This document shows positions 14,882 through 38,782 of a stretch of DNA of 53,970 nucleotides, piece by piece (within the stretch, counting starts at the first letter, position 1; every line of letters starts with the position of its first letter). Position numbers and translations under genes: made by a program. The notes under the pieces are model-generated. The model saw nothing but the letters and a program-made list of their open reading frames with translations, ran no database searches and had not been told where the DNA came from. Source of the stretch: a virus; the IMG/VR virus record IMGVR_UViG_3300025872_000072, positions 1 to 53,970 of that record. One strand, given 5' to 3'.

Positions 14882-15364
14882 TCAATCCGTGTATCGTCTG
14901 ATTAACACACCGGCATTCTCAAGTATTCCCAAACCCGAAGCATCCCTGTATGGATTCATGTATATGACCTCTTGAATGCCTCCATTCACAATGGCCTTTG
15001 CACACTGCCTACAGGGCGAGTGTGTGAGGTACATCTTCTTTCGCTTTGGATTGTTGAAATCAAGTTTGATAAGAGCATTGATCTCGGCATGTATGAAACC
15101 TGATTGACCAGGCTCAGATGACTCAACCTCATTGGGTCCTCCTCTCTGGTCTCCATTGTAACCGACAGCAAGCACCTGGGTGTTGTCATCCGTCACTATG
15201 ACGGCTCCGACGGATGTCCGTTGGTCAACAGACCTCCTTGAGAGAATCATTGATGTTTCCATCCAAACTTGATCCCACGATGGTCTCACGTTTCTCTCCG
15301 TTGAATCAGGATAATCACAAGAAGTCGTGTTGGTTATTACCTTATCAATCGTGCTGTTTGTCAC
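14882..15364 (-). CDS. dCMP deaminase
   Basis: This encodes 160 residues. It converts dCMP to dUMP for thymidylate synthesis. The zinc site is complete: HAEINAL (His ligand and catalytic Glu, about residue 92) and SPCRQCAKAI (Cys ligands, about residue 117). The N-terminal WDQVWMETSMILSRRSVDQR and TSVGAVIV are typical of the family. The start is a GTG at 15364 without a good ribosome binding site, so the N-terminal 20 residues are uncertain. It feeds the dUMP pool used by ThyX. Confidence 0.93.
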   Translation of the reverse strand: MTNSTIDKVITNTTSCDYPDSTERNVRPSWDQVWMETSMILSRRSVDQRTSVGAVIVTDDNTQVLAVGYNGDQRGGPNEVESSEPGQSGFIHAEINALIKLDFNNPKRKKMYLTHSPCRQCAKAIVNGGIQEVIYMNPYRDASGLGILENAGVLIRRYTD

Positions 15365-16244: not shown

Positions 16245-16826
16245 TCAATTATGCCCGATGCCTGTGGTAAGAGGATGGCATGCCCAGCACATGGGCTCGT
16301 ATGTGTCTGCACCACCTACAGAAATTTCATCAAGTGATGGAACGCGCCTGTGTGTGAGCTGGGCATCATCGCCGCACGATACACAGACAGCCGTGCACTT
16401 TTCGACCTTCGTTGCGAATGGGAGGAGCTTCTCTACTTCTGTGAAAGATCGTAAGTTTGCTGAGAGTTCAATTGACGAGACATACACGGAGATTCCCATA
16501 CGAAAAACCTCGATGAGGGCATCTGCGATACCATCGATCATGAAGGCCTCATCTACTGCGACAACTTCGGGTTTCTCATTTCGAATGATGTGAAGGACTT
16601 CCTGTCCACTAGAGACAGCGATGGCCGCCATCGAGGCGCCTGAATGGGTTACGATTGCACTGTCAGAATACCTGCTATCAATCACAGGTTTAAAGCAGGA
16701 GACTTTCGTCTCACGGAGACGGTGTCTCTCAATCGCTCCAACTAATCTCGTTGACTTTCCTGACCACATTGGTCCCGTAAAAACAACGAACTCTCGATTA
16801 ATCCTTGCCCGACGACGTACGGCCAT
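16245..16826 (-). CDS. tdk: Thymidine kinase (type II)
   Basis: This encodes 193 residues from the ATG at 16826, chosen because GGAGG lies six bases upstream; it overlaps the previous gene by 29 bases. Walker A is GPMWSGKST (about residues 18-26) and Walker B is VVAVDEAFMI. The lasso and zinc region has C-x2-C pairs (CVSCGDD, CWAC). It phosphorylates thymidine (and deoxyuridine) for salvage. Its place between the DHH phosphoesterase and the cupin/epimerase pair suits nucleotide scavenging. Confidence 0.92.
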   Translation of the reverse strand: MAVRRRARINREFVVFTGPMWSGKSTRLVGAIERHRLRETKVSCFKPVIDSRYSDSAIVTHSGASMAAIAVSSGQEVLHIIRNEKPEVVAVDEAFMIDGIADALIEVFRMGISVYVSSIELSANLRSFTEVEKLLPFATKVEKCTAVCVSCGDDAQLTHRRVPSLDEISVGGADTYEPMCWACHPLTTGIGHN

Positions 16827-17208
16827 AATCATCCTCCAGTCTAACGAACGTGTCCCTTGACCTATCACCGATCTCGATGATAGTTGAATCATCTACTGAC
16901 TTAATTCTATAAGGACACTCGGACTGTATAGAAAAGGTTTCACCTGCTACAATCACCACTGTTGAGTATGGATTTTCTGCGGTGTTTGAAACAGTGAAAG
17001 AGTTTCCAAAAGTGATCTCAACACAACCCTGAAGCACAAAGAATGACTTGTTCTTTAGCCTGTGATACTTGAGACTTGTCCTGTTTCCTGCTCTAATCTT
17101 TATGATCTTGCCCACCAGCGTGTCAGGTGTTGACCAGGTCCATGTCTCACCCCAAGGAGTCATCTCCTTCTTAGCGGGCCCTGCCCATCCTATCTTTGGT
17201 TCTGTCAT
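16798..17208 (-). CDS. Cupin-domain protein, sugar-metabolism type
   Basis: This encodes 136 residues from the ATG at 17208, overlapping the epimerase stop (ATGA). A single cupin barrel is visible: TSLKYHRLKNKSFFVLQGCVEI (motif 1) and a second strand set ending FSIQSECPYRIKS. It resembles the C-terminal domain of mannose-phosphate isomerase / guanylyltransferase proteins. The usual metal His set is only partly present. Coupling to an epimerase suggests nucleotide-sugar modification; the exact reaction cannot be told. Confidence 0.7.
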   Translation of the reverse strand: MTEPKIGWAGPAKKEMTPWGETWTWSTPDTLVGKIIKIRAGNRTSLKYHRLKNKSFFVLQGCVEITFGNSFTVSNTAENPYSTVVIVAGETFSIQSECPYRIKSVDDSTIIEIGDRSRDTFVRLEDDYGRTSSGKD

Positions 17209-18188
17209 AGTCCCCACCACTTCCAAGTCATCTCAAGACCTCTAGCTAGATCAACCTGCGAGACAAACCCAAGGTTTGTTGCGGCCTGCTCAGTGTTTGC
17301 CCGTGTGTGCTTAATGTCACCAACTCTGGCAGGAGCATTCGACACGTTGATCTTTCCGAATTTCAATCTGAACATGTCGAGAATTTCATTGTTTGAGTAG
17401 CTCCTGCCTGTCCCAATGTTGTATGCCTGCCCTCTAAACGGTTCAGTCCTCGTTGCAGCAAGCAGGTTTGCTCGAACGACATCACCAACAAATACCATGT
17501 CGCGTGACTGCTCACCGTCACCATCTGACCTGAGTGAGTTTCCATTTTTGACGCAGTTGCACCAGGCTGTTATTGCAGTTGCGTATGCAGAATCTCCATA
17601 CTGCCTGGGTCCGTAGACATTGAAGTATCGTAAAGAGACAGCATCAATACCGTGAAGTTCAACTGCGATTCTGATGTAGTCCTCGACAAAGAGCTTCTGT
17701 AGACCGTATGGAGAGCTGGGCTTTGGTCTTGAATCTTCGCCTGTTGGAATCTCAGCATCACCATAGAGTGCGCAAGTGGATGAGAACACGAGCCTCAGTG
17801 GAGACTTACAGTCACGTACAGCTTCAATCAACGAGAGGGAGCGTGTGCAGTTAACGTCTGTGGTCGCCGCAGGGTTCTCTACGGTCTGGCTTACCCTTGG
17901 GTTTGCAGCAAGATGGAAGACCACATCATACCTGCCATCACGAATCCTATCAAGGACATGCCTATCCTCAATGTCAGTCTCGAAGAAGACCACATCATCC
18001 TTCCCCCTCCTGTCATCAATGTGCATTGAAAGGGCAGAAATCACAGGCCTCACCCTCAGATCATCAAGATTCTCAAGCCTGCCTGTTACAAGACTGTCCA
18101 CGATATCAACAGTCCAGCCAGTCTCAACAAGCTTGTGAACAAGATTAGAACCGATGAAACCACAACCACCTGTCACAAGAGCGCGCAT
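17205..18188 (-). CDS. NAD-dependent nucleotide-sugar epimerase (GalE-like, extended SDR)
   Basis: This encodes 327 residues from the ATG at 18188, with GGAGG upstream. The Rossmann start is ALVTGGCGFIGSNLV. The catalytic set is Ser/Thr in FSSTCALYGD and the Tyr-x3-Lys in SPYGLQKLF. The C-terminal substrate region has RYFNVYGPRQ and AYNIGTGRS. It probably epimerises a UDP- or GDP-hexose. With the cupin gene and the phosphomannomutase at 37371-38150, it suggests that the phage makes a sugar donor for glycosylating DNA, capsid or host surface. No glycosyltransferase is recognised in the window. Confidence 0.88.
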   Translation of the reverse strand: MRALVTGGCGFIGSNLVHKLVETGWTVDIVDSLVTGRLENLDDLRVRPVISALSMHIDDRRGKDDVVFFETDIEDRHVLDRIRDGRYDVVFHLAANPRVSQTVENPAATTDVNCTRSLSLIEAVRDCKSPLRLVFSSTCALYGDAEIPTGEDSRPKPSSPYGLQKLFVEDYIRIAVELHGIDAVSLRYFNVYGPRQYGDSAYATAITAWCNCVKNGNSLRSDGDGEQSRDMVFVGDVVRANLLAATRTEPFRGQAYNIGTGRSYSNNEILDMFRLKFGKINVSNAPARVGDIKHTRANTEQAATNLGFVSQVDLARGLEMTWKWWGL

Positions 18189-18228
18189 AGTACCTCCGAA
18201 CCAATCATACACGTCGTACGTGAGTTGA

Positions 18229-21200
18229 TTAGCACTCCACAAGTTTCATTCGATACATGTTTGTTGAGGCGCCCCAGCCTGAACTGTTCTCGACATCGGC
18301 AACCCAGATGGTATACGGCTTGATATCTCCTTCCTTGACGCTCCAGATCCTAATCCATGTGTTGGCATTGGTAGTGTCAGTCACCTTTGCTCGAGCAAAG
18401 ACCTTATTGTTCTTTGTGGTCTTCATCTCAATTGCAAGGACACAGAACCACACAACATCCTTCTTGCCATCCTCAAGATCACCAAGCGGTGGAATCTCTG
18501 CCTTGTGAATCTTACGCATGATCTCTTCAGGGAAGAGGACATGATGAGGGGCTGAGCCCGATATCTCGGCCTGCATTGCAACCTTCTCAACACGAGACCA
18601 GTCCTCAGTTCCTGTGGTCTCATCGATGAGCCTATCGACTAGTGGCCGAGGCTTCAACTTTGCAGCCTGCTTTGCGGTCATCCCATAGCGGCCCTTCTTC
18701 AGGTCACCATAGTTTCCGATGATGATGTCATGCAGTTGCTTGTGATTTGCAACCTTGCCGCTTATCATCTCATCGATTGAGCCGAATGCCTCCATGCCAA
18801 GGAGGGCTTCGAAGCATCGACGATTGAGCTTTGAGTGTCGCCAGCCACCGTCCTGGTTATAGAGAAGCTCATCAATATTCTTGTAGGGTCGATTCTCGAT
18901 GATCTCATCGACGGCGGCGCCACCAACACCCTTCAGTGAAGAAAGGGGTGGAACGAATGCCTGAAGCTTCTCGGACCATGACCATACGTTTCCTGAGGAG
19001 TTGATGTCAGGAGGCGAGATCTTGTAGCCAAGCTGCTTGATCTCAGACATCATTACCGCCATGCCTTCCACATTGTGGTTTTCTGTCTGTAGGCATGTGG
19101 CAAGCCAGTCATGTGGATAGTAAGTCATCAGCCAGGCACCGTAGTACGAGTCGATGGCATACGCAACCGAGTGGGACTTATTGAAGCCGTACAGTGAGAA
19201 GAATGCAATCGTATCGAACAGGTCAGTTGCCTGTTTCAGGTTGAGGCCTGAACACTCCATACAACCCTTGATGAACTTCTTTTCCAATGCCTCCTTCTCG
19301 TCGGACTTCTTGCCAAGGGAGGTGAGGTCCTTCTTCACCAGGGTCTTTCGCATCTTGTCAGAGTCGCCTGGCGAGAATCCGGCAAGCTTCTGCGCCAGCA
19401 ACATGAACTGTTCCTGGAAGACGATGAACCCACACGTTGGGCCGAGAATCTCCTCGATGACCGGATGATCGTACTTGATCGCAGCCTTGTTCTTCTTCGC
19501 CTCAACATATTTCTTGTGGACGTTAGCCTTTAGGGGACCAGGCCGGTAGATTGCCGTGACGGTCGAGAGGTCGATGATGTTCTCAACCTCAGCCGCCACA
19601 CAGAACTTCCTTGCGCCGTCCGATGTGAACTGGAAGATGCCTGGCCACTTGCCTTGCTGGTAGACATTATCGAACACCTTCCTATCGTTGGGTTCGACAT
19701 ATCGACAGTTGAGCTTGTCATCATAGAACTTCTTAATGTCGACGAATGTCGGTTCACAGGCAAGTTCACGGCGAAGAATTCGACGAATGCAGTCCTCGAC
19801 CATCTGCATTTGCTTCAGACCAAGGAAGTCGAACTTGAGGAAGCCGTTCTCTTCAAGGTTTCGAATGTTGACACCCTCGGTCCACGGAGTCTGGAGTTCG
19901 CCTCGGACAGCAATGAGAGGCATGTGCTTCTCAAGTTCGGGACAGACGAGGACACCGCCGGCATGACGACCGATCGATCGATTCATCATGAAGAGAGATC
20001 GAACCTGGGACTCGACGTGTGGGTACTTCTCCATGAACTCACGGTACCTTGCCGAGTGCTCCATACAATCCTCATGCTTGAGGATGAACATGGACTTCTC
20101 CATGTTTGGGTCACGTGACTTATCAGCAACCTCCCTCTCAAGGGGACCTGTGACGGCATTCACCTCATCAAAAGGAATCTGGTAGAACTTTGAGACGTCC
20201 TTCACCAGGGACTTGAGCTTGAGGGTGTTGAAGTTAGAGACCGGAATAACAGACTCATCACCGAAGATCTCACGTGCGGCATCAATCAAGGCATCACGGT
20301 TTCCGACATCCGTGTCGATATCAGGCCAACCTGCTCGATGGCGTCCAAGGAATCGTTCCCAAAGGAGGTCGTACTTTAGTGGATCGACATGGGTGATTCC
20401 AAGGAGGTAGTTGACAAGCGAGCCTGCACCGGAACCACGACCGGCGCCTGGCAGGGTTCGATTCTCAGCGACCTTGAACACCTTCTGGAGGGTCAGGAAG
20501 TAGTTCTCGAAGCCAAGATGCTTGATATCACCAAGCTCGAACTTGGCACGCTCGACATATTCCTTGTTGTTTGCCAATCCTTCATCGATAAGCGCCTGCT
20601 TCACAAGCCCAGTGAGCTGGCTCATTGCCGTGCTTTCACTCGTTGAGAATGATGGAAGCTTTGCCTTGTCCTCGAACCAGATCTCCTCGCAAAGGTTCCA
20701 GGCAATATCATGACCGCGCTCAATGGAGTCCTTTACGATACCCTCCTTGCCGCGATAGAACTCAAACTTTTCCCAACGCTCGAGGAACTCACCCCACATC
20801 TGGGTGTGGTTCTTTGGATAGAGTTCAGCCTTCAGCTGTTCCTTAGTCGGTAGGACGGGAGCAGTTCCGTCGTTCTTGATTCGACCTGGCTGAAGCTGAC
20901 GATAGATTTCACGAGATTCCCAGGCATCAGGCGACGGGTAGTGGGCATCCGAGGTCGTAAGAAGGTTGATGCCTGTCCTATCTGCAAGTTCAAGCATGCA
21001 CATGTTCGTGAGGTCCTGTGCACCAAGCTTATTGAACTGCATCTCAAGGAAGAAGTTCTCGCGGCCAACGCAATCTACGAACCGATCGACCATGTTCGTA
21101 AGCCTGCCCATGATGCGATTCAGCATGGCAGGATCAGTGATGAGATCGGGACTCAGCTGGTCGAACTTTGCTTCAGGAAATTCGCGGTAGATGAGACCAC

Positions 21201-21777
21201 TTGGATAGCCTCCAACACAGGCGGTGGAAACAACAAGGCCCTCACCATGTTCCCTGAGCATGTTGAAGTCAATACGAGGAAACTTGTAGAATCCATCCTT
21301 GAAGGACTTCTTGACCAGAGTGAAGAGGTTGGAGAGTCCGACACGGTTCTTTGCAACAACGACGAGATGATAACGTCGGTTTGGATTGTCTTCCTGCTCG
21401 GTACGAGTCTCATCGGCATCTTCGACGACGAGACCTGCCGCCTCCTCATCTTGGTCAGGTGCGGACTCGCCTGAGAGGTCTTCAAGCTTCACCTTGGAAG
21501 CCTCGTAGGTTCGCTTCCACTCCTTCAGGTCAGGAACAAAGTAGAATTCAACGCCATAAAGTTGACGGAACTGCTTGCCCTTGGACTTTACCTTCTTTGC
21601 ATGCGCATGCGCATGTGCAAGACCGTTGCCGTTGCCGTGGTCGGTCAAAGACCATGAATCGAGACCATTGTTCAGGCAGAAGTCGATGTGCTCAGCAGGA
21701 TTGCCGAGACCATCGTACGGTGAGAATGTCGAGTGATTGTGAAGGCTTGCATACCGTGTTGGCGCAGAAAAGTTCAT
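18229..21777 (-). CDS. dnaE: DNA polymerase III alpha subunit (family C)
   Basis: This encodes 1182 residues, full length for DnaE. A PHP domain at the N-terminus has its metal motifs (LHNHSTFSPYDG, TDHGNGNG). The catalytic core includes PGAGRGSGAGSLVNY (443-457) and PDIDTD (485-490), the two catalytic Asp. The C-terminal HhH and OB-like regions are present. It is the main replicative polymerase candidate. No DnaN clamp or clamp loader lies in the window. The ATG at 21777 has AGGAG seven bases upstream, but both fall in a cloverleaf-like inverted repeat (21775-21837). Confidence 0.96.
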   Translation of the reverse strand: MNFSAPTRYASLHNHSTFSPYDGLGNPAEHIDFCLNNGLDSWSLTDHGNGNGLAHAHAHAKKVKSKGKQFRQLYGVEFYFVPDLKEWKRTYEASKVKLEDLSGESAPDQDEEAAGLVVEDADETRTEQEDNPNRRYHLVVVAKNRVGLSNLFTLVKKSFKDGFYKFPRIDFNMLREHGEGLVVSTACVGGYPSGLIYREFPEAKFDQLSPDLITDPAMLNRIMGRLTNMVDRFVDCVGRENFFLEMQFNKLGAQDLTNMCMLELADRTGINLLTTSDAHYPSPDAWESREIYRQLQPGRIKNDGTAPVLPTKEQLKAELYPKNHTQMWGEFLERWEKFEFYRGKEGIVKDSIERGHDIAWNLCEEIWFEDKAKLPSFSTSESTAMSQLTGLVKQALIDEGLANNKEYVERAKFELGDIKHLGFENYFLTLQKVFKVAENRTLPGAGRGSGAGSLVNYLLGITHVDPLKYDLLWERFLGRHRAGWPDIDTDVGNRDALIDAAREIFGDESVIPVSNFNTLKLKSLVKDVSKFYQIPFDEVNAVTGPLEREVADKSRDPNMEKSMFILKHEDCMEHSARYREFMEKYPHVESQVRSLFMMNRSIGRHAGGVLVCPELEKHMPLIAVRGELQTPWTEGVNIRNLEENGFLKFDFLGLKQMQMVEDCIRRILRRELACEPTFVDIKKFYDDKLNCRYVEPNDRKVFDNVYQQGKWPGIFQFTSDGARKFCVAAEVENIIDLSTVTAIYRPGPLKANVHKKYVEAKKNKAAIKYDHPVIEEILGPTCGFIVFQEQFMLLAQKLAGFSPGDSDKMRKTLVKKDLTSLGKKSDEKEALEKKFIKGCMECSGLNLKQATDLFDTIAFFSLYGFNKSHSVAYAIDSYYGAWLMTYYPHDWLATCLQTENHNVEGMAVMMSEIKQLGYKISPPDINSSGNVWSWSEKLQAFVPPLSSLKGVGGAAVDEIIENRPYKNIDELLYNQDGGWRHSKLNRRCFEALLGMEAFGSIDEMISGKVANHKQLHDIIIGNYGDLKKGRYGMTAKQAAKLKPRPLVDRLIDETTGTEDWSRVEKVAMQAEISGSAPHHVLFPEEIMRKIHKAEIPPLGDLEDGKKDVVWFCVLAIEMKTTKNNKVFARAKVTDTTNANTWIRIWSVKEGDIKPYTIWVADVENSSGWGASTNMYRMKLVEC

Positions 21778-21860: not shown

Positions 21861-22295
21861 CTACTCGATGTGACCGTAGTACGGCTCGAATAGGACCTTT
21901 CGCTCGTCAATGCAGCGCTTCAGGTAATCACGAAGCTCATCGTAACTCGTGGTCACCTTCACGCCTGACTGGGCCAGCATCAGGTTGAAGTTGCCAGTGA
22001 GACCCTGGGCAAAGTAAACGATCGGAACGTTTGCATTGTATGCCACACCTGCCTCGAAGATCGTGCCCATGTCCTTGTCTCGCGTGTTGCAAAGGACAAA
22101 GTCGGCAGTTCGAATGTGCTCAATGTTTCCCTTGAACGTGTCCTTCTGGACGTCAAGAGAAGCATTTGGTGGACAGATGAAGATCTTGCGTGGAGATGCC
22201 ACGTTGAGACCGAGGTCACCGAGAAGATTCTCAAGTGCCTCAACCTCTTCAAGAGCCTTGGGTGTGAACCAGCCAGATGCGAGATATACCTTCAT
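21861..22295 (-). CDS. Nucleoside 2-deoxyribosyltransferase-family enzyme
   Basis: This encodes 144 residues from the ATG at 22295, with AGGAA upstream. MKVYLASGWF at the start and GNIEHIRTADFVLCNT, then DMGTIFEAGVAY with the catalytic Glu, mark the family. Members swap bases on deoxyribosides (NDT) or hydrolyse deoxynucleotide glycosidic bonds (DNPH1/MilB type); the sequence does not settle which. It heads the cluster 21861-26145 with a flavin reductase, a kinase and a ThyX-like enzyme. Its stop is 84 bases from dnaE, and the dnaE promoter lies between. Confidence 0.85.
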   Translation of the reverse strand: MKVYLASGWFTPKALEEVEALENLLGDLGLNVASPRKIFICPPNASLDVQKDTFKGNIEHIRTADFVLCNTRDKDMGTIFEAGVAYNANVPIVYFAQGLTGNFNLMLAQSGVKVTTSYDELRDYLKRCIDERKVLFEPYYGHIE

Positions 22296-22306
22296 GTTTC
22301 TATTCC

Positions 22307-22876
22307 TCAGTAGTTGAGATTGATATTGTTTGCTGAGATTCCGAATTGTTCAACATTCGATCTGATGGACTCCAGCAACTCTTTCGTTCCTGCAAAGAAC
22401 ACCTGCGTTCCAACAGGAAACTTGTCAACCCCGAAAGGGGTCAAAGGAGTTGCTGGACGATCACTTTCCCTTGTGACCCACGAGATCCCACCTGCACTCT
22501 CAACATTCTTCTGGAACGGGTGGGGCCAACGAGAGTATGAAACAAACCATGTGCGAAGACCTGCATTGCGACGATAGTCAAGGACGCTGATACAAGCTCC
22601 GATGCCAGTTCCTCCGCATATGACTACGGCATTTTCGCAGTCAACATTCGGAAAACCATTCCCAGCTGGACCAGACAGGTCCACATCAGAACCGACATCA
22701 ACATCAAGCGGCCCCCCATGACGAGTGAGCACAGTTACCTCGCCATCGCTGGACTCAGCAACGGCAAAGTACCTGCCACCAATCACGACACACTGCCCAG
22801 GCTTCACTTCAGAATCAAGTGCATATGAGACTGTCATGAAATCAGGGCCAACATTCTTCCTTGTGACCTTTGCCAT
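22307..22876 (-). CDS. FNR-fold FAD/NAD(P) oxidoreductase, small
   Basis: This encodes 189 residues. An N-terminal flavin-binding barrel has RYFAVAES in the place of the R-x-Y-S motif and GPAGNGF. An NAD(P) domain follows with VICGGTGIGACISVL and a C-terminal FFAGTKELLESI. It resembles minimal ferredoxin-NADP reductase / PyrK-type reductases without a 2Fe-2S cysteine set. It would pass electrons from NAD(P)H to a flavin or a partner. The neighbouring ThyX-like flavoprotein is the obvious candidate partner, but this is inference. Confidence 0.82.
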   Translation of the reverse strand: MAKVTRKNVGPDFMTVSYALDSEVKPGQCVVIGGRYFAVAESSDGEVTVLTRHGGPLDVDVGSDVDLSGPAGNGFPNVDCENAVVICGGTGIGACISVLDYRRNAGLRTWFVSYSRWPHPFQKNVESAGGISWVTRESDRPATPLTPFGVDKFPVGTQVFFAGTKELLESIRSNVEQFGISANNINLNY

Positions 22877-22877
22877 A

Positions 22878-23414
22878 CTACACCCAAGCCTTCACGAGGC
22901 CTTGCATTGTTTCTCGCATCTCGCGGTCAAGGTCCTCATCATCAACATTCACCAGCACCGTCTTACACTTGGTCCACTTTGCAAACTGCATGTAGAGGTC
23001 ATGAATCCTTGTGATGTTGTCGTTGATGTTGTCATACTCATCCTTGACACCTGCATACGAGGATCGATGAGGAATGACGATGACCGTGCCAAGCCTTGCA
23101 TGACGTTCATCAAGCTGCCGAAGGAGCTCAAAGTCAGTCTGCCTTCCGAGGGCTTGAGAGTATATCCACTCGGAAGGCCAGGCGCGGTCGAGGATTACCG
23201 ATGAATCAGAGGACTCGAGGTACGAGGTGAAGTAAGTGTCCACATAGCGGATCGCATTGAGGAAGTAGCTTGGGTCCTTGAGGAAGTACTCGTGTTCCGC
23301 GGTATTCTTGAAGTACGGGATACCGAGTCGACGGCTAAGCTCCTTTGCCTGCTCGGTTTTTCCCGTGCGATCTGGACCATCGTAAATGATGATTCTTTGT
23401 GTTTGCTTATTCAA
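22878..23414 (-). CDS. Deoxynucleoside monophosphate / thymidylate kinase
   Basis: This encodes 178 residues. The P-loop IIYDGPDRTGKTEQA is at about residues 9-23, the DR motif is in VILDRAWPSEWIYS (about residue 75), and a lid region lies near residue 115. It converts a dNMP to dNDP; thymidylate kinase is the nearest match, but the base-binding residues differ enough that a modified substrate is possible. It lies one base from the FNR gene and ten bases from the homing endonuclease stop. Confidence 0.85.
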   Translation of the reverse strand: MNKQTQRIIIYDGPDRTGKTEQAKELSRRLGIPYFKNTAEHEYFLKDPSYFLNAIRYVDTYFTSYLESSDSSVILDRAWPSEWIYSQALGRQTDFELLRQLDERHARLGTVIVIPHRSSYAGVKDEYDNINDNITRIHDLYMQFAKWTKCKTVLVNVDDEDLDREMRETMQGLVKAWV

Positions 23415-23423
23415 TTACAACTC

Positions 23424-24203
23424 CTAAAGAAGGACAACGTCAGAATTGCTTGCAGCTTCAGACTTTGTGATTGTAGTAGACAACTCGGTAAAGATCAAAA
23501 ATGTCAATCCATTTTGAGAACAAAAGTTTTCTGCAGCCTCAAACTTCATGAGATTCGACCTTGTCTTCACAAGCTTAATGGGTTTTGCCTCAATCAATAG
23601 TCCAAGCTCCTCAATCAAAAAGTCAGGACGATATGTCCTTTGTGTTTCTGCGTCCTTGTACGGAATGAGAAAGGGCTCATGACGCATTTTCTCAAGAGGA
23701 ATTCCCTCTCTTTCATAGTGCATCATGCAAGTCAATTCAAGCAAACTCCTAAAGTAGCAGCCTTTGTAGTATCCCTTTGTGCCCTTGCCTGAGAGCTTTG
23801 GTGCAGGTTTCCCATACATTGGGTTCCTTTCACCGGGATGAGACTTTTTGCTTGAGATCTGCGCAGCCCGCTCAGGTCCATACATCTCAGCATCAGACTT
23901 TCCCTTTCTAGCTCTGCACCATTCATGAGCCTTTTTTATCTGGTCATTTCTCCCATACATGGGATTCCTTTCGCCAGATGTGACAATGCTCATAGTTTTT
24001 ATGAACTCTTCGTGCCTTTTTGTGCCTTCTTCATCGCCATATCTTTCAACAAGAAATGCTAATGACATGTTCATGCCCTTTATTGCGTTGGCATTTCTAG
24101 TTCCTTTTGCATGCCCATGCTTATTAGAACATGACTTGCTGCAGAACTTTTTACCCTTATTCAAGGGGCCATCGCAAAATAAGCACTTTTTGACATCTTC
24201 CAT
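23424..24203 (-). CDS. Free-standing homing endonuclease, PD-(D/E)xK type with NUMOD3 motifs
   Basis: This encodes 259 residues. An N-terminal zinc-finger-like segment (CLFCDG ... CSKSCSNKH) is followed by two NUMOD3 DNA-binding motifs (SGERNPMYGR and PGERNPMYGK). The C-terminal nuclease core has RTYRPDFLIEELGLLIEAKP, giving PD ... E-x-K, near residue 200. It sits between the kinase and ThyX-like genes without an intron. Codon use is more AT-rich than its neighbours (many AAA, TTT), a sign of separate origin. Its ribosome binding site is buried in an 11-bp hairpin. Confidence 0.82.
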   Translation of the reverse strand: MEDVKKCLFCDGPLNKGKKFCSKSCSNKHGHAKGTRNANAIKGMNMSLAFLVERYGDEEGTKRHEEFIKTMSIVTSGERNPMYGRNDQIKKAHEWCRARKGKSDAEMYGPERAAQISSKKSHPGERNPMYGKPAPKLSGKGTKGYYKGCYFRSLLELTCMMHYEREGIPLEKMRHEPFLIPYKDAETQRTYRPDFLIEELGLLIEAKPIKLVKTRSNLMKFEAAENFCSQNGLTFLIFTELSTTITKSEAASNSDVVLL

Positions 24204-24206
24204 GGC

Positions 24207-24236
24207 GTATCCTCCTACCTTTAATTAGGAGGATAC
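24207..24236 (-). promoter_or_regulatory. Hairpin sequestering the homing-endonuclease ribosome binding site
   Basis: Perfect 11-base arms GTATCCTCCTA and TAGGAGGATAC surround an 8-base loop. The TAGGAGG ribosome binding site, seven bases from the ATG at 24203, lies in the 3' arm on the minus strand. The same logic controls several T4 homing endonucleases. Confidence 0.7.
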
Positions 24237-24280
24237 AATCCACATGTGTCAGATCCCTCAAAAGAAGGCCAAACTATCTC

Positions 24281-25207
24281 TTACTTTCCCTCGACCTTAC
24301 GGATTCGTGCCTCGTAACCGATGGTCTTCCAGTCCTCGATCATCTCCTTCTCACCTGGGAAGAGGAGGTGGTCAGGAAGCTCCTGTAGCTCGAAGAACCA
24401 TGCGGACTTCTCGAACTTCCAGTCAGGCTGATTCTCAGGATTCGTGAGGGATGGAATGTGCTTGCCGGCGGAAGGGGCACGACCGGTGTTACCGAAGACC
24501 TTGTCGGTGTTGAGACAGGTCTTATTCGCACCCATCGCCTCGAGCTTGGTGAGGAGGTTTGCCCAACCGGAACCCTTCACCTTCTCAGTGCCGTCCTCGT
24601 TGAGGTGTGCCTTGATGAGCTCATGACGAATGAGACGACCGATGAGGTTGAGCTCGTCGGTGAGGCCGTTCTCACAGCGGCGGGCAAAGTAACCACGAAG
24701 TGCCATGAAGTTGACGACACAAACGAGGTTGGTCTGCTGGCCATGGAATGTCATGTAACGACAGTCCTGTGGAGGAACACCCGCATCAACCATCTGATCA
24801 TAAAGGGCCTGGGACTGCTGGACAAGCGCGGCTGCCTTCTCACCAAAGAGAGGGTGCTCGTAGATATTCTTGGGAATCGTCACACGATGCTCGATGGCCT
24901 CCGGCATCTGGGAAGTGACACAGTAAGCCCAACCAACCCGACCACGGGTAAACTGTGCCAGACCAACGCGGCTAATTCCCTCAACACGGATCTGGAAGTT
25001 GAGAGCCTCCTGTGGAACAGGAAGCGCGGTACCAGCAAGGACCTCCTTGCAGGCCTCAATGTGCTTTGGGTTGGTGTGATCGTATTCCTGGTTACGAAGA
25101 GAGTACCAGGTCTCACGGTACCAGTTCCAGAACATCTGGTATGGATTGTCAATGCCAGAATCGAGAAGGGTTACCTTGATATCGCCAAAGCCGTTTGAAA
25201 TGCTCAC
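24281..25207 (-). CDS. Divergent ThyX-like flavoprotein
   Basis: This encodes 308 residues, longer than typical ThyX (about 220-250). It is recognised by QFTRGRVGWAYCVTSQ in the position of the RHRx7S signature (here RGR, 7 residues, T-S), followed by EHRVTIPKN, then a helix pair PPQDCRYMTF and NFMALRGYFARRCENGLTDELN like the ThyX C-terminal domain. The signature His is Gly. A C-terminal extension of about 90 residues is unique. It probably acts on a pyrimidine nucleotide; the genome already has a canonical ThyX at 38150-38782. The ATG overlaps the upstream stop. Confidence 0.65.
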   Translation of the reverse strand: MSISNGFGDIKVTLLDSGIDNPYQMFWNWYRETWYSLRNQEYDHTNPKHIEACKEVLAGTALPVPQEALNFQIRVEGISRVGLAQFTRGRVGWAYCVTSQMPEAIEHRVTIPKNIYEHPLFGEKAAALVQQSQALYDQMVDAGVPPQDCRYMTFHGQQTNLVCVVNFMALRGYFARRCENGLTDELNLIGRLIRHELIKAHLNEDGTEKVKGSGWANLLTKLEAMGANKTCLNTDKVFGNTGRAPSAGKHIPSLTNPENQPDWKFEKSAWFFELQELPDHLLFPGEKEMIEDWKTIGYEARIRKVEGK

Positions 25208-26145
25208 TTTACCTCCAGACTGTTGATAATTGAACGAAACTCGGATGAGTTGCCGTACATAGAAATGTTTCTTACGCCTTCAAGTTGTTCATTGTATGGG
25301 ACCCTTGGTGACAGGGTCATTACGCCATGGGATGCGTATTCAAGGGCATGCTTCGGTGAATCGTCAATTGCAAAGAGAACATGACCCTTAGTGTAGAAGT
25401 CTTGACCGTATAACCAACGATACTTCTCAGGACTGAATGCGACCCCATCGAATGGAACACCATTCTCCTGCAACCAGGAGAACGTTGAGCATTCAACCAT
25501 TGGGTTCTCTTGCGGTCGAGCCGTGAGGATCTGGACCCAGACTCCTCGACTCGAAAGGGCACGAAGCTCATTTACGAGCCAATCAATGGGACGAAGCCGC
25601 GCCATGCCACCCTCATTGATAAACTCATCAAATGCGCGGCTTGGTTCAAGCCCTGCATCAAGAAGCGCCTGGGTATTGTAGTACTCCTTTCCAGTAAGGT
25701 TAGTCTTTACACCCCTCTTCCCAAGCCAATCGTAGAAGTCAGTCCTGAAGTCTGCAATCACGTCGTCCATGTCAACGATGACGACAGGCTCACCTGACCA
25801 CTTCTTTGTCAGCAGCCTCTGTCGGATGCTGAGGTGGGAGTCACGTAGTTCCATTGCAAACTCAAGGTCTTCATGGGTAAAATCCCATGTGTTCAGGATT
25901 GCTGCGACATACCTGATGACATCAACCGACTCAAACAACATCTTGTTTCGATTCAGGAACCTGTCATCGATGTGATGCCTGAAGTTGATGCTGTTGGTAA
26001 GCTGGCCTACCTCATTGTGAAGCGAGAGGAGGAGGGTCTTTGTTAGTTCAAGCCTTCCCTCATCGTCCTTTCCAAACTGGCCAACAGTCTCACCAAAGAG
26101 ACGCTGTGAATAGAGGATGCCCTTTACTGTGTTGAAGTTCTTCAT
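25204..26145 (-). CDS. All-alpha NTP pyrophosphohydrolase-like domain fused to HAD 5'-nucleotidase
   Basis: This encodes 313 residues. Residues 1-110 (ELTKTLLLSLHNEVGQLTN ... LFESVDVIRYVAAILNTW) match the dimeric dUTPase/MazG helix pattern with E-x3 and E-x2-D metal positions. Residues 118-300 form a HAD phosphatase of the deoxyribonucleotidase type: VVIVDMDDVIADF (motif I), ILTARPQE (motif II) and FAIDDSPKHALEYA (motif IV). Together it could turn a dNTP into a dNMP and then a nucleoside. The ATG at 26145 lies five bases from a promoter -10, so the mRNA is probably leaderless. Confidence 0.78.
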   Translation of the reverse strand: MKNFNTVKGILYSQRLFGETVGQFGKDDEGRLELTKTLLLSLHNEVGQLTNSINFRHHIDDRFLNRNKMLFESVDVIRYVAAILNTWDFTHEDLEFAMELRDSHLSIRQRLLTKKWSGEPVVIVDMDDVIADFRTDFYDWLGKRGVKTNLTGKEYYNTQALLDAGLEPSRAFDEFINEGGMARLRPIDWLVNELRALSSRGVWVQILTARPQENPMVECSTFSWLQENGVPFDGVAFSPEKYRWLYGQDFYTKGHVLFAIDDSPKHALEYASHGVMTLSPRVPYNEQLEGVRNISMYGNSSEFRSIINSLEVK

Positions 26146-35497: not shown

Positions 35498-35881
35498 TCA
35501 GTAGCCCTCTTGAATACGACGCAGGATCTTGTTGTGCTTTGATCGATAAGCTTTCACAAACTCATCGGCATCAATTCCAAGTAGCACAAGGACTGACAGA
35601 AAGTAGTTCATCGCGTCTACGGTCTCTTCAAGGAACGCATTACGATCAAAGTCAGGAAGGTCCGTCTGCCTGTGCGGCTTTGAGTTCTTCAGATGCTGGA
35701 TCGCCTCGAACATTTCCTCAACACCACGTAGAGCAACGTCCTTAATCATGACCTGGTTTGACTTTATTGTTGGGTCAACAGGCCACTCACAATACGTGCC
35801 TGGCACATTCTCACGCAAAGCAAGCATAAACTGCTCACGTAATTCAAACATCTCTTCGAGCTTATCGATTTCCGAGCTCAT
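35498..35881 (-). CDS. Dimeric dUTPase / MazG-type NTP pyrophosphohydrolase
   Basis: This encodes 127 residues from the ATG at 35881, with GGAG upstream. Helical metal motifs: LRGVEEMFEAIQHLKN (E-x2-E) and FLEETVDAMNYFLSVLVLLG (E-x2-D), then the C-terminal YRSKHNKILRRIQ. The arrangement matches phage all-alpha dUTPases, which convert dUTP to dUMP and keep uracil out of DNA. It would supply dUMP to ThyX. It overlaps the upstream small gene by 20 bases. Confidence 0.85.
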   Translation of the reverse strand: MSSEIDKLEEMFELREQFMLALRENVPGTYCEWPVDPTIKSNQVMIKDVALRGVEEMFEAIQHLKNSKPHRQTDLPDFDRNAFLEETVDAMNYFLSVLVLLGIDADEFVKAYRSKHNKILRRIQEGY

Positions 35882-36068
35882 TTGCGGTCTCCAGCATGCG
35901 ATTAATGCTATCGTCAAGACCCTTTAGGAAATCCTGATCGGGATCGATCACATCACCGTTCAAGGTGAAACGCATGAGACGAAGATTGTCGGTCACGTCC
36001 GTTCCAGTCAGGATGGCCATCTGTATGAGCTTTGCAATTGAGGCAATTGAATTGTCAGAAAGTCGCAT
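35862..36068 (-). CDS. Small protein upstream of dUTPase, unknown
   Basis: This encodes 68 residues from the ATG at 36068, with AAGGAG upstream. It is helical (SIASIAKLIQMAILTG ... FLKGLDDSINRMLETANEL) and moderately acidic. The longer frame extending upstream is a shadow over the glycosylase gene. No family recognised. Confidence 0.7.
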   Translation of the reverse strand: MRLSDNSIASIAKLIQMAILTGTDVTDNLRLMRFTLNGDVIDPDQDFLKGLDDSINRMLETANELGNR

Positions 36069-36108: not shown

Positions 36109-36900
36109 TTATAGCTGAACTCGTGGAACCCACCATGTCGTCCGTCCGTCCTTCGTCTCCTGGCAGACGACATCATCACCATTTGGATCTCGCTTTCGAC
36201 CGTAGACCAGCATTGAGTGCTTGCCCTCCTTGCCATCGAATCCCTTGTATGTGAGGATTGTTGAACCGCCGTTGAGATAGGCAGTTCGGATGACATCACT
36301 CACGGATTCACTAAGAAGCGTGAGCTGCTCATCTGTTGAATCCCCTACCTTTCGCCAAGGGCTCAGCTTTGCCAACCAAAGCGAGTCAGCCTTCAGGTAA
36401 TTCCCGACACCGGAGACAACGCCCTGGTTCATGAGAACCTCTGCTAGGGTTGCATCAGGATGCTTGCGAAGCCTCTCGATGAATGTACTGGGCTTCACGT
36501 TCTCGTTGAGCATGTCAGGACCAAGGGATGCCAACTTCAGCTTCAGGTCCTTTCGATTACAGAACTTCACAGTTCCAAAGTTGCGAGGATCATTGAAGTA
36601 GAGGTCACCCACAGATGTCTCAAACTTCACTCTAGCATGACGAGGAACATTCGACCAGGCTCCGGACATTCCAAGTGTGTTGAAGATGACAACATCAGCG
36701 TTCTTGAAAGTCCAGTAGATGAACTTGCCCTTGCAACCAACGCTCTCAACAGTTAGGGGAAACTGTGTGCTTGTAAGACCCTCAATCGGCTTCTTAGTGT
36801 AGCGACCGGACAACGGAGTTACTGATTGCAGTAGGTCACCCTCGGTAAGAAAGTTGTTGATGGAACGAACAAAGTTAGTGACTTCCGGACCCTCAGGCAT
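36109..36900 (-). CDS. Nei/Fpg-family DNA glycosylase with zincless finger
   Basis: This encodes 263 residues beginning MPEGPEV, with catalytic Pro2 and Glu3. Also visible are FNDPRNFGTV, the H2TH region GVVSGVGNYLKADSLW (about residue 165) and the end GRTTWWVPRVQ. The usual four-Cys zinc finger is absent: only one Cys remains and the Arg of the intercalation loop is kept, so it is of the zincless type. It removes oxidised pyrimidines or related bases and nicks the backbone. It overlaps the adjacent MBD4-like gene by eight bases. Confidence 0.9.
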   Translation of the reverse strand: MPEGPEVTNFVRSINNFLTEGDLLQSVTPLSGRYTKKPIEGLTSTQFPLTVESVGCKGKFIYWTFKNADVVIFNTLGMSGAWSNVPRHARVKFETSVGDLYFNDPRNFGTVKFCNRKDLKLKLASLGPDMLNENVKPSTFIERLRKHPDATLAEVLMNQGVVSGVGNYLKADSLWLAKLSPWRKVGDSTDEQLTLLSESVSDVIRTAYLNGGSTILTYKGFDGKEGKHSMLVYGRKRDPNGDDVVCQETKDGRTTWWVPRVQL

Positions 36901-37336
36901 GTACAGTCTCCTCTCGATACAGGTTCTTCAGATGATCGTGATAAGCGTTCAAGGCATGGTCCTTGGGGTGAACATTACGCCAATCACCAAGGATGAAGAT
37001 TCGATAGGCGTCCGAGGCATACTTGCCGACACCATGAAGCTCATTCACATCCTTCCACTGTGCGGAATGGAATTGTGCAGACATTCGCTTCAGTGTCTGA
37101 GTTCGCTTCTTCTGCATCCCAAGAGTCTTGATGGTCTCCTCGAGGTCGGCATCATTTGCCTGTGATAGGGCAAGAGCGTTAGGCCATTTCTGGAACAGAA
37201 CTTCAACGACAGGTTCCATCTGCTTCCTTGTCGTCAGATTAAGACACAGGCAACAGACGAGTATCTTCCACTCGTCTGGCCAGTACTTTTCCTGGATGAG
37301 ACCGAACTTGGGGGGATGCCACACGTTTGCCTCCAT
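36893..37336 (-). CDS. MBD4-like HhH-GPD DNA glycosylase
   Basis: This encodes 147 residues, the size of an isolated catalytic domain. ELHGVGKYASDAYRIF is the helix-hairpin-helix and VHPKDHALNAYHDHL carries the catalytic Asp; these match the C-terminal glycosylase domain of animal and plant MBD4 more closely than MutY or Nth, and there is no Fe-S cysteine loop. MBD4 removes T or U opposite G and 5-hydroxymethyluracil. The ATG at 37336 lacks a ribosome binding site and lies six bases from a promoter -10. Coupled to the Nei gene. Confidence 0.85.
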   Translation of the reverse strand: MEANVWHPPKFGLIQEKYWPDEWKILVCCLCLNLTTRKQMEPVVEVLFQKWPNALALSQANDADLEETIKTLGMQKKRTQTLKRMSAQFHSAQWKDVNELHGVGKYASDAYRIFILGDWRNVHPKDHALNAYHDHLKNLYREETVHA

Positions 37337-37370: not shown

Positions 37371-38150
37371 TCAGTAAGGAGTTCCGTGTCTCACGTGTCC
37401 CATGATTTCGTCAATGATTCCCGCAGTCTCATCGTGGTCACTTACGCTGTATGCACGATCATGATTCTTGAGGGCTTCATAGATCTCATAGTCGTTTCCA
37501 TTTGCCTGACACCTGTCTCCCACAAACCAGACTGTTTCATCTGGAAAGTGATTGAGAGCGTATGTCTTGTCCCAGCCTACCGGGTAGATATCGAATGAGG
37601 TAGATCCACCAAGCTTTGCAACAAGCGGAGTTCTAATCGTCATGAGACGAAGCTTCAACAGGGAAAGGATGCCAAGTCTGAAGTCATTTCTTGCATCGAA
37701 ACTCTCAAACCAGGTCCTGCTTGAGCGATCTGCTTCCCTGCCAATTGGACACCAGTTGACCATTGAGCTCCGTGAGGAAACAAAGTTTCCAGTCAGGGGA
37801 AGGTCTCGAACGTTCTCCATGACCTCACGCTGCATGGTATTGAGAATGAGGTGAAGGTCACGCCACTCCTGTCCCAGGTGATTCATCATAGACTTGGGGA
37901 CCGCCTGGGCCTGCCAGTGACCATTGACAAGTTTCCAGTGTTCAGTGCCATTGCACGGCAATGCTTCCACGCCATGCTCAAATGCCTCAAGCGGAACCTG
38001 CTCCTTGACATAGTCGAGTGCAGAACCTGTCACAATTCCAACCCTTGCAAAGGCAGAGAGTTCAGTAAGCTTCTGTAAGTTCTTTTGAGTGATTCCCTGA
38101 CGCGGTGGTGTCAAAGTTCCATCAAGATCAAAGAGTACAACGTCTCGCAT
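37371..38150 (-). CDS. Phosphomannomutase, eukaryotic (PMM/HAD) type
   Basis: This encodes 259 residues. The HAD motif I is VVLFDLDGTLTPPRQG. NFVSSRSSMVNWCPIGR is the PMM substrate region, and the FDIYPVGWDKTYAL, VWFVGDRCQANGNDYE block is diagnostic of PMM1/PMM2-type enzymes. It interconverts mannose-6-phosphate and mannose-1-phosphate for GDP-mannose. Bacterial hosts normally use unrelated ManB enzymes, so this was probably acquired. The stop and start overlap with thyX is TAATG. Related sugar genes are at 16798-18188. Confidence 0.88.
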   Translation of the reverse strand: MRDVVLFDLDGTLTPPRQGITQKNLQKLTELSAFARVGIVTGSALDYVKEQVPLEAFEHGVEALPCNGTEHWKLVNGHWQAQAVPKSMMNHLGQEWRDLHLILNTMQREVMENVRDLPLTGNFVSSRSSMVNWCPIGREADRSSRTWFESFDARNDFRLGILSLLKLRLMTIRTPLVAKLGGSTSFDIYPVGWDKTYALNHFPDETVWFVGDRCQANGNDYEIYEALKNHDRAYSVSDHDETAGIIDEIMGHVRHGTPY

Positions 38151-38782
38151 TAGTATCCAAATGCCTCAATCGTATGTTTGAAAGGATTGCCGTCAATGTT
38201 CCTAACGAGATCCAGCATCTTCTCTGCAAGTTCCCTAACTTCGGTCTGGGCATCAGGCTTCATGCGCAGGCCGAGAAAGTGATTGAAAGATCGCCAGTTG
38301 AACATGACGTCCATTGTAATCTGATTCCCATAGGGTAGGTAGAACCTGGCAGACTCCTTGGCACGCTTACGATCCATTCCGCTGTCGACAAGCCGTTGAA
38401 GGGTTTCGTGATAACGCATGAGTGCGTCCTCCATGAAAGCAACATACTTTGCCTTCTCAGTGAGGGGCCAGTCCTGGGGGACATAGTATTTGTCGTCCTT
38501 AAGTTCTTTATAGCGTGCAGATTCACCGTTGATCGAGACACCAATACGGTGTTTCAAGAGATGAATATGGACACTCGTGTCAACAGTTACAAGAAAGTGA
38601 AGGCTTGACTTCTCAAAAACGGTGTGATGTCCCTGTTCAGCAAGCATCTTGAGAAGTTGCGAGATCCTATTTTTCTTTTCATCGTTCAAATCACGAGAGG
38701 TCGATGTCCAAGCTGACAATGCGTGTGTTTCATCTGAGCCATACCATCCGATGAGCTCTACTTTATTCTCCTGACACGACAT
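38150..38782 (-). CDS. thyX: Flavin-dependent thymidylate synthase ThyX
   Basis: This encodes 210 residues. It methylates dUMP to dTMP using FAD, folate and NAD(P)H. The signature KHRIGVSINGESARY (variant of RHRx7S, His present) is near residue 77 and the C-terminal LRMKPDAQTEVRELAE carries the substrate Arg. The ATG at 38782 has GGAGG upstream, and the first 19 bases overlap the GIY-YIG gene. A diverged fragment of the same N-terminus lies just beyond that gene at 39558-39722. Confidence 0.93.
   Translation of the reverse strand: MSCQENKVELIGWYGSDETHALSAWTSTSRDLNDEKKNRISQLLKMLAEQGHHTVFEKSSLHFLVTVDTSVHIHLLKHRIGVSINGESARYKELKDDKYYVPQDWPLTEKAKYVAFMEDALMRYHETLQRLVDSGMDRKRAKESARFYLPYGNQITMDVMFNWRSFNHFLGLRMKPDAQTEVRELAEKMLDLVRNIDGNPFKHTIEAFGY

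What the first reader, a model, noticed from the sequence alone, without database searches (positions are those of the whole stretch)
21861..26145. Possible pyrimidine-modification or recycling cluster built around a divergent ThyX-like enzyme
One transcript encodes a deoxyribosyltransferase-family enzyme, a small FNR-type reductase, a dNMP kinase, a ThyX-like protein with a changed signature, and a dUTPase-like/HAD-nucleotidase fusion. Canonical ThyX, dUTPase and dCMP deaminase are elsewhere in the window, so this set is redundant for dTTP. A dedicated flavin reductase next to a ThyX-like protein is unusual, because known ThyX enzymes reduce their own FAD. A modified pyrimidine nucleotide made by the ThyX-like enzyme, activated by the kinase and policed by the hydrolases would explain the set. 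This is inference from gene content.
Basis: partly seen in the sequence, partly recalled or inferred. Interest (0 to 1): 0.75.

Follow-up and report, generated by a model that had tools for sequence, protein, structure and literature searches.

The report
Phage's second, re-tooled thymidylate-synthase-like enzyme
An uncultured phage carries, besides a normal enzyme that makes the DNA letter T, a second one with a rebuilt active site and its own kinase; this pair probably makes a modified DNA letter, but no chemistry has been shown.

Summary
The gene set is real, with corrections. ThyX2 has the ThyX fold but fails the thyX family cut-off (36 vs 87.9 bits). In 14 of 14 ThyX2 sequences the Arg and Tyr of the substrate-recognition peptide are lost. 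A canonical ThyX coexists.

Relatives narrow the claim. ThyX2 and the kinase are inseparable: independent scans of 2.9 million viral contigs with each gene found the same contigs. One relative has two overlapping pairs, canonical ThyX + dTMP kinase and ThyX2 + this kinase. The reductase is optional. Deoxyribosyltransferase, phosphatase and dUTPase belong to an older neighbourhood, which in a wider uncultured phage clade holds another divergent ThyX (ThyX3; also in cultured Geobacillus phage GR1).

Best reading: ThyX2 makes a 5-substituted pyrimidine dNMP other than dTMP and the kinase activates it. Closest precedent: Bacillus phage SP-15 (hypermodified uracil; two Thy1 proteins, the divergent one beside NDT and reductase genes). 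Substrate and product are inferred. Confidence 0.45.

The parts
24281..25207 (-). ThyX2: divergent 308-aa ThyX-fold protein with about 100-aa C-terminal extension; motif R88-G-R-V-G-W-A-Y-C-V-T-S-Q-M-P102 in place of RHRxxSxNxxSxRY
   Evidence: PF02511 58 bits; AF2 pTM 0.82 and 156 PDB matches with E<=0.001, all 50 listed being ThyX; TIGR02170 36.2 vs cut-off 87.9; 14/14 invariant changes
22878..23414 (-). P-loop kinase, remotely dTMP-kinase-like, partner of ThyX2
   Evidence: phrog_761 1e-13; PF13521/PF02223 below cut-off; next gene after ThyX2 in relatives, apart from inserted genes; independent scan recovers the ThyX2 contigs
25204..26145 (-). Fusion: degraded all-alpha dUTPase_2-like N-terminus + HAD (NT5C-like) phosphatase with all four HAD motifs conserved
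   Evidence: PF06941 3e-6, PF08761 weak; alignment A5: D125, D127, T208, K241, D261/D262 invariant
22307..22876 (-). Minimal FNR-superfamily NAD(P)H/flavin reductase; optional, fast-evolving
   Evidence: AF2 pLDDT 92.5 and Foldseek to cytochrome b5 reductase, PyrK, Fre; absent at the locus in L008, L017, L022
21861..22295 (-). Nucleoside 2-deoxyribosyltransferase family, DxGTxxExG and NLM motifs kept
   Evidence: PF05014 7e-13; 6evs_A N-deoxyribosyltransferase 1e-10
23424..24203 (-). Inserted TnsA/homing-endonuclease-like gene between ThyX2 and kinase (mobile element, not part of the pathway)
   Evidence: PF08722 2e-9; only L009 has it at this place (53%); relative carries NUMOD3
38150..38782 (-). 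Canonical ThyX (ThyX1), motif KHRIGVSINGESARY
   Evidence: PF02511 128 bits; TIGR02170 111.7 vs cut-off 87.9
35498..35917 (-). dUTPase_2-like NTP pyrophosphatase (separate gene)
   Evidence: PF08761 0.0012; phrog_12184 6e-14, phrog_18650 dUTPase 7e-6
18229..21777 (-). DnaE DNA polymerase III alpha, neighbour used as independent marker of the phage clade
   Evidence: tblastn to DnaE-like phage polymerases; clade scan
14882..15364 (-). dCMP deaminase-like
   Evidence: PF00383 4e-20
16245..16892 (-). Thymidine kinase
   Evidence: PF00265 2e-35

Best explanation
ThyX2 is a neofunctionalised flavin-dependent thymidylate synthase. It still holds and activates a pyrimidine deoxynucleoside monophosphate, most likely dUMP, but installs at C5 a group other than the methyl of dTMP (for example it stops at hydroxymethyl, or accepts another aldehyde-type donor). 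The neighbouring kinase phosphorylates that product towards the triphosphate, parallel to canonical ThyX and dTMP kinase. The phosphatase, the dUTPase-type hydrolase and the deoxyribosyltransferase edit the monophosphate and nucleoside pools so that the product can enter phage DNA. The FNR protein is an accessory electron donor in some lineages. Shown here: gene set, fold, rebuilt motif, conservation, coexistence with canonical ThyX, pairing with the kinase. Inferred: substrate, product, kinase specificity, incorporation into DNA.
For: Fold is ThyX, but TIGR02170 is failed (36.2 vs 87.9) while the window's own ThyX1 passes. All 14 ThyX2 keep the residues equivalent to PolB Arg86, Arg88, Ser96 and Arg193 (the last is T. 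maritima Arg174, which activates N3 of dUMP, PMC8316439). All 14 replace His87 by Gly, Ser91 by Ala, Glu94 by Val, Arg98 by Met, Tyr99 by Pro, Gln206 by Thr, and carry ALP[VTI]PxE where canonical ThyX has GHxSxxEH (residue roles from PMC5003785 and PMC8316439). R90A and Y91A in T. maritima ThyX strongly slow consumption of the flavin carbinolamine, the methylene donor (PMC8316439). Conservation is strong: dN/dS 0.06, 57-93% identity in relatives where RecA and DnaB are 53-92%. Canonical ThyX coexists in 8 ThyX2 records. Kinase and ThyX2 co-occur and lie together away from the other genes in G009. G005 carries canonical ThyX + dTMP kinase (84713-85486, 85483-86064) and ThyX2 + kinase (94810-95742, 95739-96266), each pair overlapping by 4 nt. 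Precedent: SP-15 with 5-dihydroxypentyluracil DNA has two Thy1 proteins; gp130 is proposed as the modified-dUMP synthase (PMC5977210) and lies beside NDT gp127 and reductase gp129.
Against: No assay, no virion-DNA chemistry and no downstream hypermodification enzyme was identified. Loss of catalytic residues could also mean loss of catalysis. Kinase-ThyX adjacency is equally natural for plain dTTP synthesis. SP-15 gp130 is not detectably related to ThyX2 or ThyX3, and its role is itself a hypothesis. HAD and FNR are not constant partners.
Confidence: 0.45

Rival explanations
1. ThyX2 + kinase is a second, ordinary dTTP route: ThyX2 makes dTMP with an altered cofactor or electron supply, and the kinase is a divergent dTMP kinase. 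Two ThyX genes give higher flux or cover different hosts.
For: Kinase beside ThyX is the canonical arrangement (G005 and G032). Arg174-equivalent and Ser88-equivalent are kept. GR1 has a divergent ThyX3 as its only recognisable thymidylate synthase. Mixed ThyX1 types show that phages of this clade replace ThyX freely.
Against: Residues needed for efficient methyl transfer are invariantly lost. G005 already has a canonical ThyX-dTMP kinase pair. Strong conservation of two different non-canonical motifs (ThyX2, ThyX3) after a long stem suggests a different product.
Confidence: 0.25
2. ThyX2 acts on dCMP, giving 5-methyl- or 5-hydroxymethyl-dCMP, as T4 gp42 and gp1 do with unrelated enzymes; canonical ThyX then supplies dTMP separately.
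For: Both residues that contact the pyrimidine O4 in PolB (Arg98 directly, Gln206 through water; PMC5003785) are changed, to Met and Thr. Canonical ThyX stays needed. The window and relatives G002, G013, L110, L111, L117, L140 carry an MBD4-like glycosylase, a type known to remove deamination products of 5-substituted cytosine (established knowledge).
Against: ThyX activates uracil through N3 deprotonation by Arg174 (PMC8316439), kept in all ThyX2; cytosine has no N3 proton and would need another activation. MBD4-like genes are patchy and also occur with ThyX3.
Confidence: 0.15
3. ThyX2 is no longer a DNA-precursor C5-transferase: it is a non-catalytic or regulatory ThyX-fold protein, or works on a ribonucleotide or signalling nucleotide.
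For: Motif residues on the phosphate and cofactor side are changed. PolB shows that ThyX paralogues can turn to ribonucleotides (PMC5003785). Neighbours vary.
Against: Residues kept include the base-activating Arg, and the partners are a kinase plus deoxynucleotide enzymes.
Confidence: 0.15

Closest known systems
Bacillus phage SP-15 gp130 (second Thy1 protein, proposed modified-dUMP synthase; PMC5977210, KT624200)
   Same: Two Thy1-family proteins in one phage, one canonical and one divergent and long; NDT (gp127) and a reductase (gp129) beside the divergent one; large phage
   Different: gp130 gives no significant match to ThyX2 or ThyX3 profiles; its reductase is annotated as 3-oxoacyl-ACP (SDR-type), not FNR; no such kinase beside it; SP-15 has a chemically known modified uracil, this phage does not
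Canonical ThyX / TIGR02170 (T. maritima ThyX, window ThyX1)
   Same: Fold, Arg174 and Ser88 equivalents, RxR core, PF02511 match
   Different: His79, Arg90, Tyr91 and His53-loop equivalents lost; about 100-aa C-terminal extension; below equivalog cut-off; coexists with a canonical copy
PolB, UMP/dUMP C5-methylase of polyoxin biosynthesis (PMC5003785)
   Same: A ThyX paralogue kept beside a normal ThyX for a purpose other than dTTP
   Different: PolB keeps the full motif (SFNEESARY); ThyX2 does not; cellular secondary metabolism versus phage
ThyX3 / Geobacillus phage GR1 UDY80709 type (found here)
   Same: Same syntenic slot (dUTPase-HAD-X-NDT-DnaE), N-terminal and ALPxPxE features shared, profile match 98.8% over 200 columns, sister clade 97/88
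   Different: Motif RHRxxSFxAQCTGDR with Cys at the Ser88 position; no ThyX2-type kinase; different C-terminal sequence
dU-DNA phage dTMP phosphatases (PBS1 Dtm NT5C-like, DSS3_VP1 Dtm HD-type; PMC12697855)
   Same: The same two phosphatase families, HAD/NT5C or HD, sit beside ThyX2/ThyX3
   Different: Substrate of the HAD/HD here untested; canonical ThyX present, so full loss of T is unlikely
T4 gp42/gp1/gp56 hydroxymethyl-dCTP module (established knowledge)
   Same: Logic: modifying enzyme, dedicated kinase, NTP pyrophosphatase
   Different: Unrelated enzymes; gp42 is a ThyA homologue, and no ThyA-family protein was found in 12 of these records

Membership tests
Canonical ThyX (flavin-dependent thymidylate synthase) | PF02511 match / ThyX fold | tested here: met
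   58 bits vs cut-off 24.8; Foldseek 3fnn 3e-7, PolB 4p5b 2e-6
Canonical ThyX (flavin-dependent thymidylate synthase) | NCBIfam equivalog TIGR02170 cut-off | tested here: not met
   36.2 vs 87.9 bits; window ThyX1 111.7 passes
Canonical ThyX (flavin-dependent thymidylate synthase) | Signature RHRxxSxNxxSxRY with Arg90/Tyr91 | tested here: not met
   14/14 have RGRxGWAYxVxSQMP; His to Gly, Arg to Met, Tyr to Pro
Canonical ThyX (flavin-dependent thymidylate synthase) | dUMP to dTMP activity with FAD and NADPH | not testable with these tools
   needs purified protein
Phage modified-pyrimidine (precursor-level) pathway | Paralogue of a nucleotide C5-transferase beside a canonical one in the genome | tested here: met
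   both Thy1 proteins in 8 ThyX2 records and 9 of 17 records of the wider clade
Phage modified-pyrimidine (precursor-level) pathway | Dedicated kinase for the modified monophosphate | tested here: inconclusive
   co-extensive kinase but specificity unknown
Phage modified-pyrimidine (precursor-level) pathway | Hydrolases depleting the competing nucleotide | tested here: inconclusive
   HAD/HD phosphatase and dUTPase_2 neighbours; substrate unknown, not constant
Phage modified-pyrimidine (precursor-level) pathway | Non-standard base in virion DNA | not testable with these tools
   uncultured phage; needs LC-MS
SP-15 gp130 family | Sequence homology beyond the superfamily | tested here: not met
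   hmmsearch E 0.04, 0.6 bits
FNR superfamily reductase | FNR fold with flavin barrel and NAD(P) domain | tested here: met
   pLDDT 92.5; 7rom 7e-11, 1ep1_B 5e-9, 1qfj 3e-7
FNR superfamily reductase | Constant partner of ThyX2, as a dedicated electron donor would be | tested here: not met
   absent from L008/L010, L017, L022 loci and not found in 117-kb G009; fragments, so presence elsewhere in the genome is not excluded
dTMP kinase | TIGR00041 / PF02223 cut-off | tested here: not met
   21 vs 83.25 and 19 vs 27 bits

The most novel reading that the evidence does not exclude
A whole branch of uncultured large phages uses ThyX-fold enzymes (ThyX2 with its own kinase, and ThyX3) instead of ThyA-type hydroxymethylases to make a modified deoxypyrimidine for their DNA, giving a flavin-based precursor-level DNA modification with a new ThyX reaction.
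Probability: 0.4. Interest if true: 0.85.

Novelty: new variant of a known kind. Interest (0 to 1): 0.6.

Why it matters
The precursor-level phage base modifications whose enzymes are known (established knowledge) start with ThyA-type enzymes. A ThyX-based start was only proposed, for SP-15 gp130. Here are two large conserved ThyX-like families with rebuilt active sites, one with a co-extensive kinase, coexisting with canonical ThyX in many genomes. That makes the question testable: clone ThyX2 + kinase, or read the nucleosides of the cultured ThyX3 phage GR1. If true it would add a new reaction to the ThyX fold and a marker for unseen DNA modifications in metagenomic phages.

Tried and rejected
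Five-gene unit: rejected as stated, because FNR and HAD are optional and NDT/HAD/dUTPase also go with ThyX3. FNR as obligatory ThyX2 reductase: not supported. Kinase as plain dTMP kinase by family cut-off: not met. Relation to SP-15 gp130 by sequence: none detectable. PDB sequence search with the ThyX2 profile gave only PPR and esterase noise; the fold search was needed. Cellular ThyX2 in 84,980 genomes: none found. ThyA-family hydroxymethylase in the relatives: none. AdoMetDC in the clade: only the G009/G010/G011 branch. A gene in L005 that I read as glycosyltransferase-like gave no family, PDB or phage match. Literature searches found no published ThyX-based base modification other than the SP-15 hypothesis; only open-licence papers were searched. 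The presence of ThyX2 in all ThyX2-found contigs is by construction; the DnaE scan was run to remove that bias and showed that ThyX2 is confined to part of the clade.
Full report
OBSERVATION. The minus strand holds, 5' to 3': HAD fusion 26145-25204, ThyX2 25207-24281, an endonuclease-like gene 24203-23424, kinase 23414-22878, FNR-like 22876-22307, NDT 22295-21861, then DnaE 21777-18229. HAD and ThyX2 overlap by 4 nt, and kinase and FNR are 1 nt apart. They place the kinase only loosely near dTMP kinase and identify the missed gene as a TnsA/homing-endonuclease type. Among relatives only L009 has that gene at this place, so it is an insertion that split a conserved ThyX2-kinase pair. Canonical ThyX, dUTPase_2-like, dCMP deaminase and thymidine kinase are elsewhere in the window. 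The record is a 53,970-bp virus fragment.

FOLD AND ACTIVE SITE. An AlphaFold model of ThyX2 (pTM 0.82) has 156 PDB matches with E<=0.001, and the 50 listed are all ThyX. The thyX equivalog model is failed by ThyX2 (36.2 vs 87.9 bits) and passed by the window's ThyX1 (111.7). Published roles (PMC5003785, PMC8316439) allow a residue-by-residue reading: PolB Arg98 binds phosphate and O4; T. maritima Arg90/Tyr91 (PolB Arg98/Tyr99) take part in acid catalysis; PolB Arg193 (T. maritima Arg174) contacts O2 and activates N3; Gln206 contacts O4 through water. In 14 of 14 ThyX2 sequences Arg193, Ser96 and the two Arg of RxR are kept. His87 is Gly, Ser91 Ala, Glu94 Val, Arg98 Met, Tyr99 Pro and Gln206 Thr. 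Mapping rests on MAFFT alignments at low identity and is least certain at Gln206. The kept Arg argues that a pyrimidine base is still activated. The lost Arg/Tyr argues that the ordinary methyl-transfer step is not.

CONSTRAINT. dN/dS against L003 is 0.06 for ThyX2, 0.09 for the kinase and 0.06 for NDT. FNR is 49% identical to L003 where ThyX2 is 93%, and 37% to L005 where ThyX2 is 77%. In the tree ThyX2 is one clade (100/99) on a stem of 2.56 changes per site with short inner branches: a long change followed by strong constraint. Canonical ThyX1, by contrast, is of different types in G005, G006 and G009.

CO-OCCURRENCE. ThyX2 scans found 16 viral contigs besides the window, none among 84,980 genomes, and nothing above 32% identity among 50,697 phage records. 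An independent scan with the kinase alignment returned the same contigs. The one mismatch on each side is two contigs of the same metagenome, each ending beside the partner gene (L015, L099). In a divergent member, G009, ThyX2 and kinase lie together 60 kb from NDT, dUTPase and DnaE. FNR is missing at the locus in L008/L010, L017 and L022 and was not found in the held sequence of G006, G009 and G015. HAD is missing or replaced beside ThyX2 in L005, L011, L013, L014, L017 and L027. So the ThyX2-kinase pair is the unit and the rest is neighbourhood.

TWO PAIRS IN ONE PHAGE. Relative G005 carries a canonical ThyX (139.7 bits, passes TIGR02170) overlapping by 4 nt a PF02223 dTMP-kinase-family gene, at 84713-86064. 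It also carries ThyX2 overlapping by 4 nt the divergent kinase, at 94810-96266. G032 has the canonical pair next to each other too. This is the best single argument that the ThyX2 pair does something other than dTTP supply. It remains inference.

THE WIDER CLADE. To escape the bias of finding contigs through ThyX2, DnaE was used as marker. The same slot, dUTPase-HAD-X-NDT-DnaE, is held in many contigs by another divergent ThyX, called ThyX3 here (motif RHRxxSFxAQCTGDR, C-terminal extension), without the kinase. In eight loci an HD phosphatase stands beside ThyX3 in place of HAD. ThyX3 coexists with canonical ThyX in 9 of 17 records tested. ThyX2 and ThyX3 match over 200 columns at 98.8% probability and are sisters in the tree (97/88), with the usual caution for long branches. 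ThyX3's best PDB match is a T. maritima chain with Cys aligned at the Ser88 position (3g4c), in line with ThyX3's invariant Cys there. A cultured ThyX3 phage exists: Geobacillus phage GR1 (46% identity), where ThyX3 is the only Thy1 protein and no ThyA is found. That weakens redundancy as a general argument but gives a test object.

PRECEDENT. Phage SP-15, whose DNA carries 5-dihydroxypentyluracil, has two Thy1 proteins; its authors propose that gp130 makes the modified nucleotide (PMC5977210). Gene 130 lies beside an NDT (127) and a reductase (129), with the canonical Thy1 (gp9) elsewhere. The architecture matches, but sequence homology to ThyX2/3 is not detectable. dU-DNA phages PBS1 and DSS3_VP1 use NT5C-like and HD-type dTMP phosphatases (PMC12697855), the same two families found here next to ThyX2/3; the substrate here is unknown.

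MECHANISM. Most likely ThyX2 converts dUMP (less likely dCMP) to a 5-substituted dNMP other than dTMP, and the kinase activates it; phosphatase, NTPase and NDT edit pools; FNR is optional electron supply. Steps shown: genes, fold, residue changes, pairing. Steps inferred: flavin use, substrate, product, kinase specificity, entry into DNA. Plain dTMP synthesis remains a real rival at about 0.25.

VERDICT. It is a new variant of a known or proposed kind; interest 0.6.

Noticed in passing
window 36893-37336 (-): MBD4-like DNA glycosylase (E about 1e-32 to MBD4 structures), next to an Fpg-like glycosylase (36109-36900); homologues in G002, G013, L110, L111, L117, L140. Would fit repair of deaminated 5-substituted cytosine.
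   Followed up: partly
L110:7482-8453 and about 30 further DnaE loci; OK896991 28752-29720: ThyX3: a second divergent ThyX family with invariant QCTGDR motif, in the same slot without the kinase, with a cultured member in Geobacillus phage GR1.
   Followed up: partly
L127, L131, L132, L139, L141, L148, L164, L166: An HD-type (deoxy)nucleotide phosphohydrolase stands beside ThyX3 in place of the HAD phosphatase.
   Followed up: partly
L015:6703-7713, L016:6704-7720, G006:1499-2536: Glutamine-synthetase-like gene between NDT and ThyX2, and in G006 beside canonical ThyX1.
   Followed up: no
L011:5119-5496, L013:7711-8088, L014:4451-4828: AdoMet decarboxylase-like gene downstream of ThyX2-kinase in one branch only (G009 is 25% GC).
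   Followed up: partly
L005:6758-7948: 396-aa gene directly upstream of ThyX2, where other relatives have HAD; I read it as glycosyltransferase-like but no family, PDB or phage match was found.
   Followed up: partly
window 23424-24203; L009:8966-9793; L007:10183-11361; L009:11046-12188; L007 DnaE: Repeated invasion of this locus by mobile elements: TnsA/HNH-type genes, GIY-YIG-like sequence in frame with NDT, and a probable intein in DnaE (the last two by reading).
   Followed up: no
L027:9698-10789; L022:8705-9754: IMPDH/GMP-reductase-like gene between FNR and NDT; SAM-methyltransferase gene between ThyX2 and kinase.
   Followed up: no
window 37371-38150, 17205-18242, 16798-17226: Phosphomannomutase-like, NAD-epimerase and cupin/mannose-6-P-isomerase-like genes: a possible nucleotide-sugar route.
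   Followed up: no
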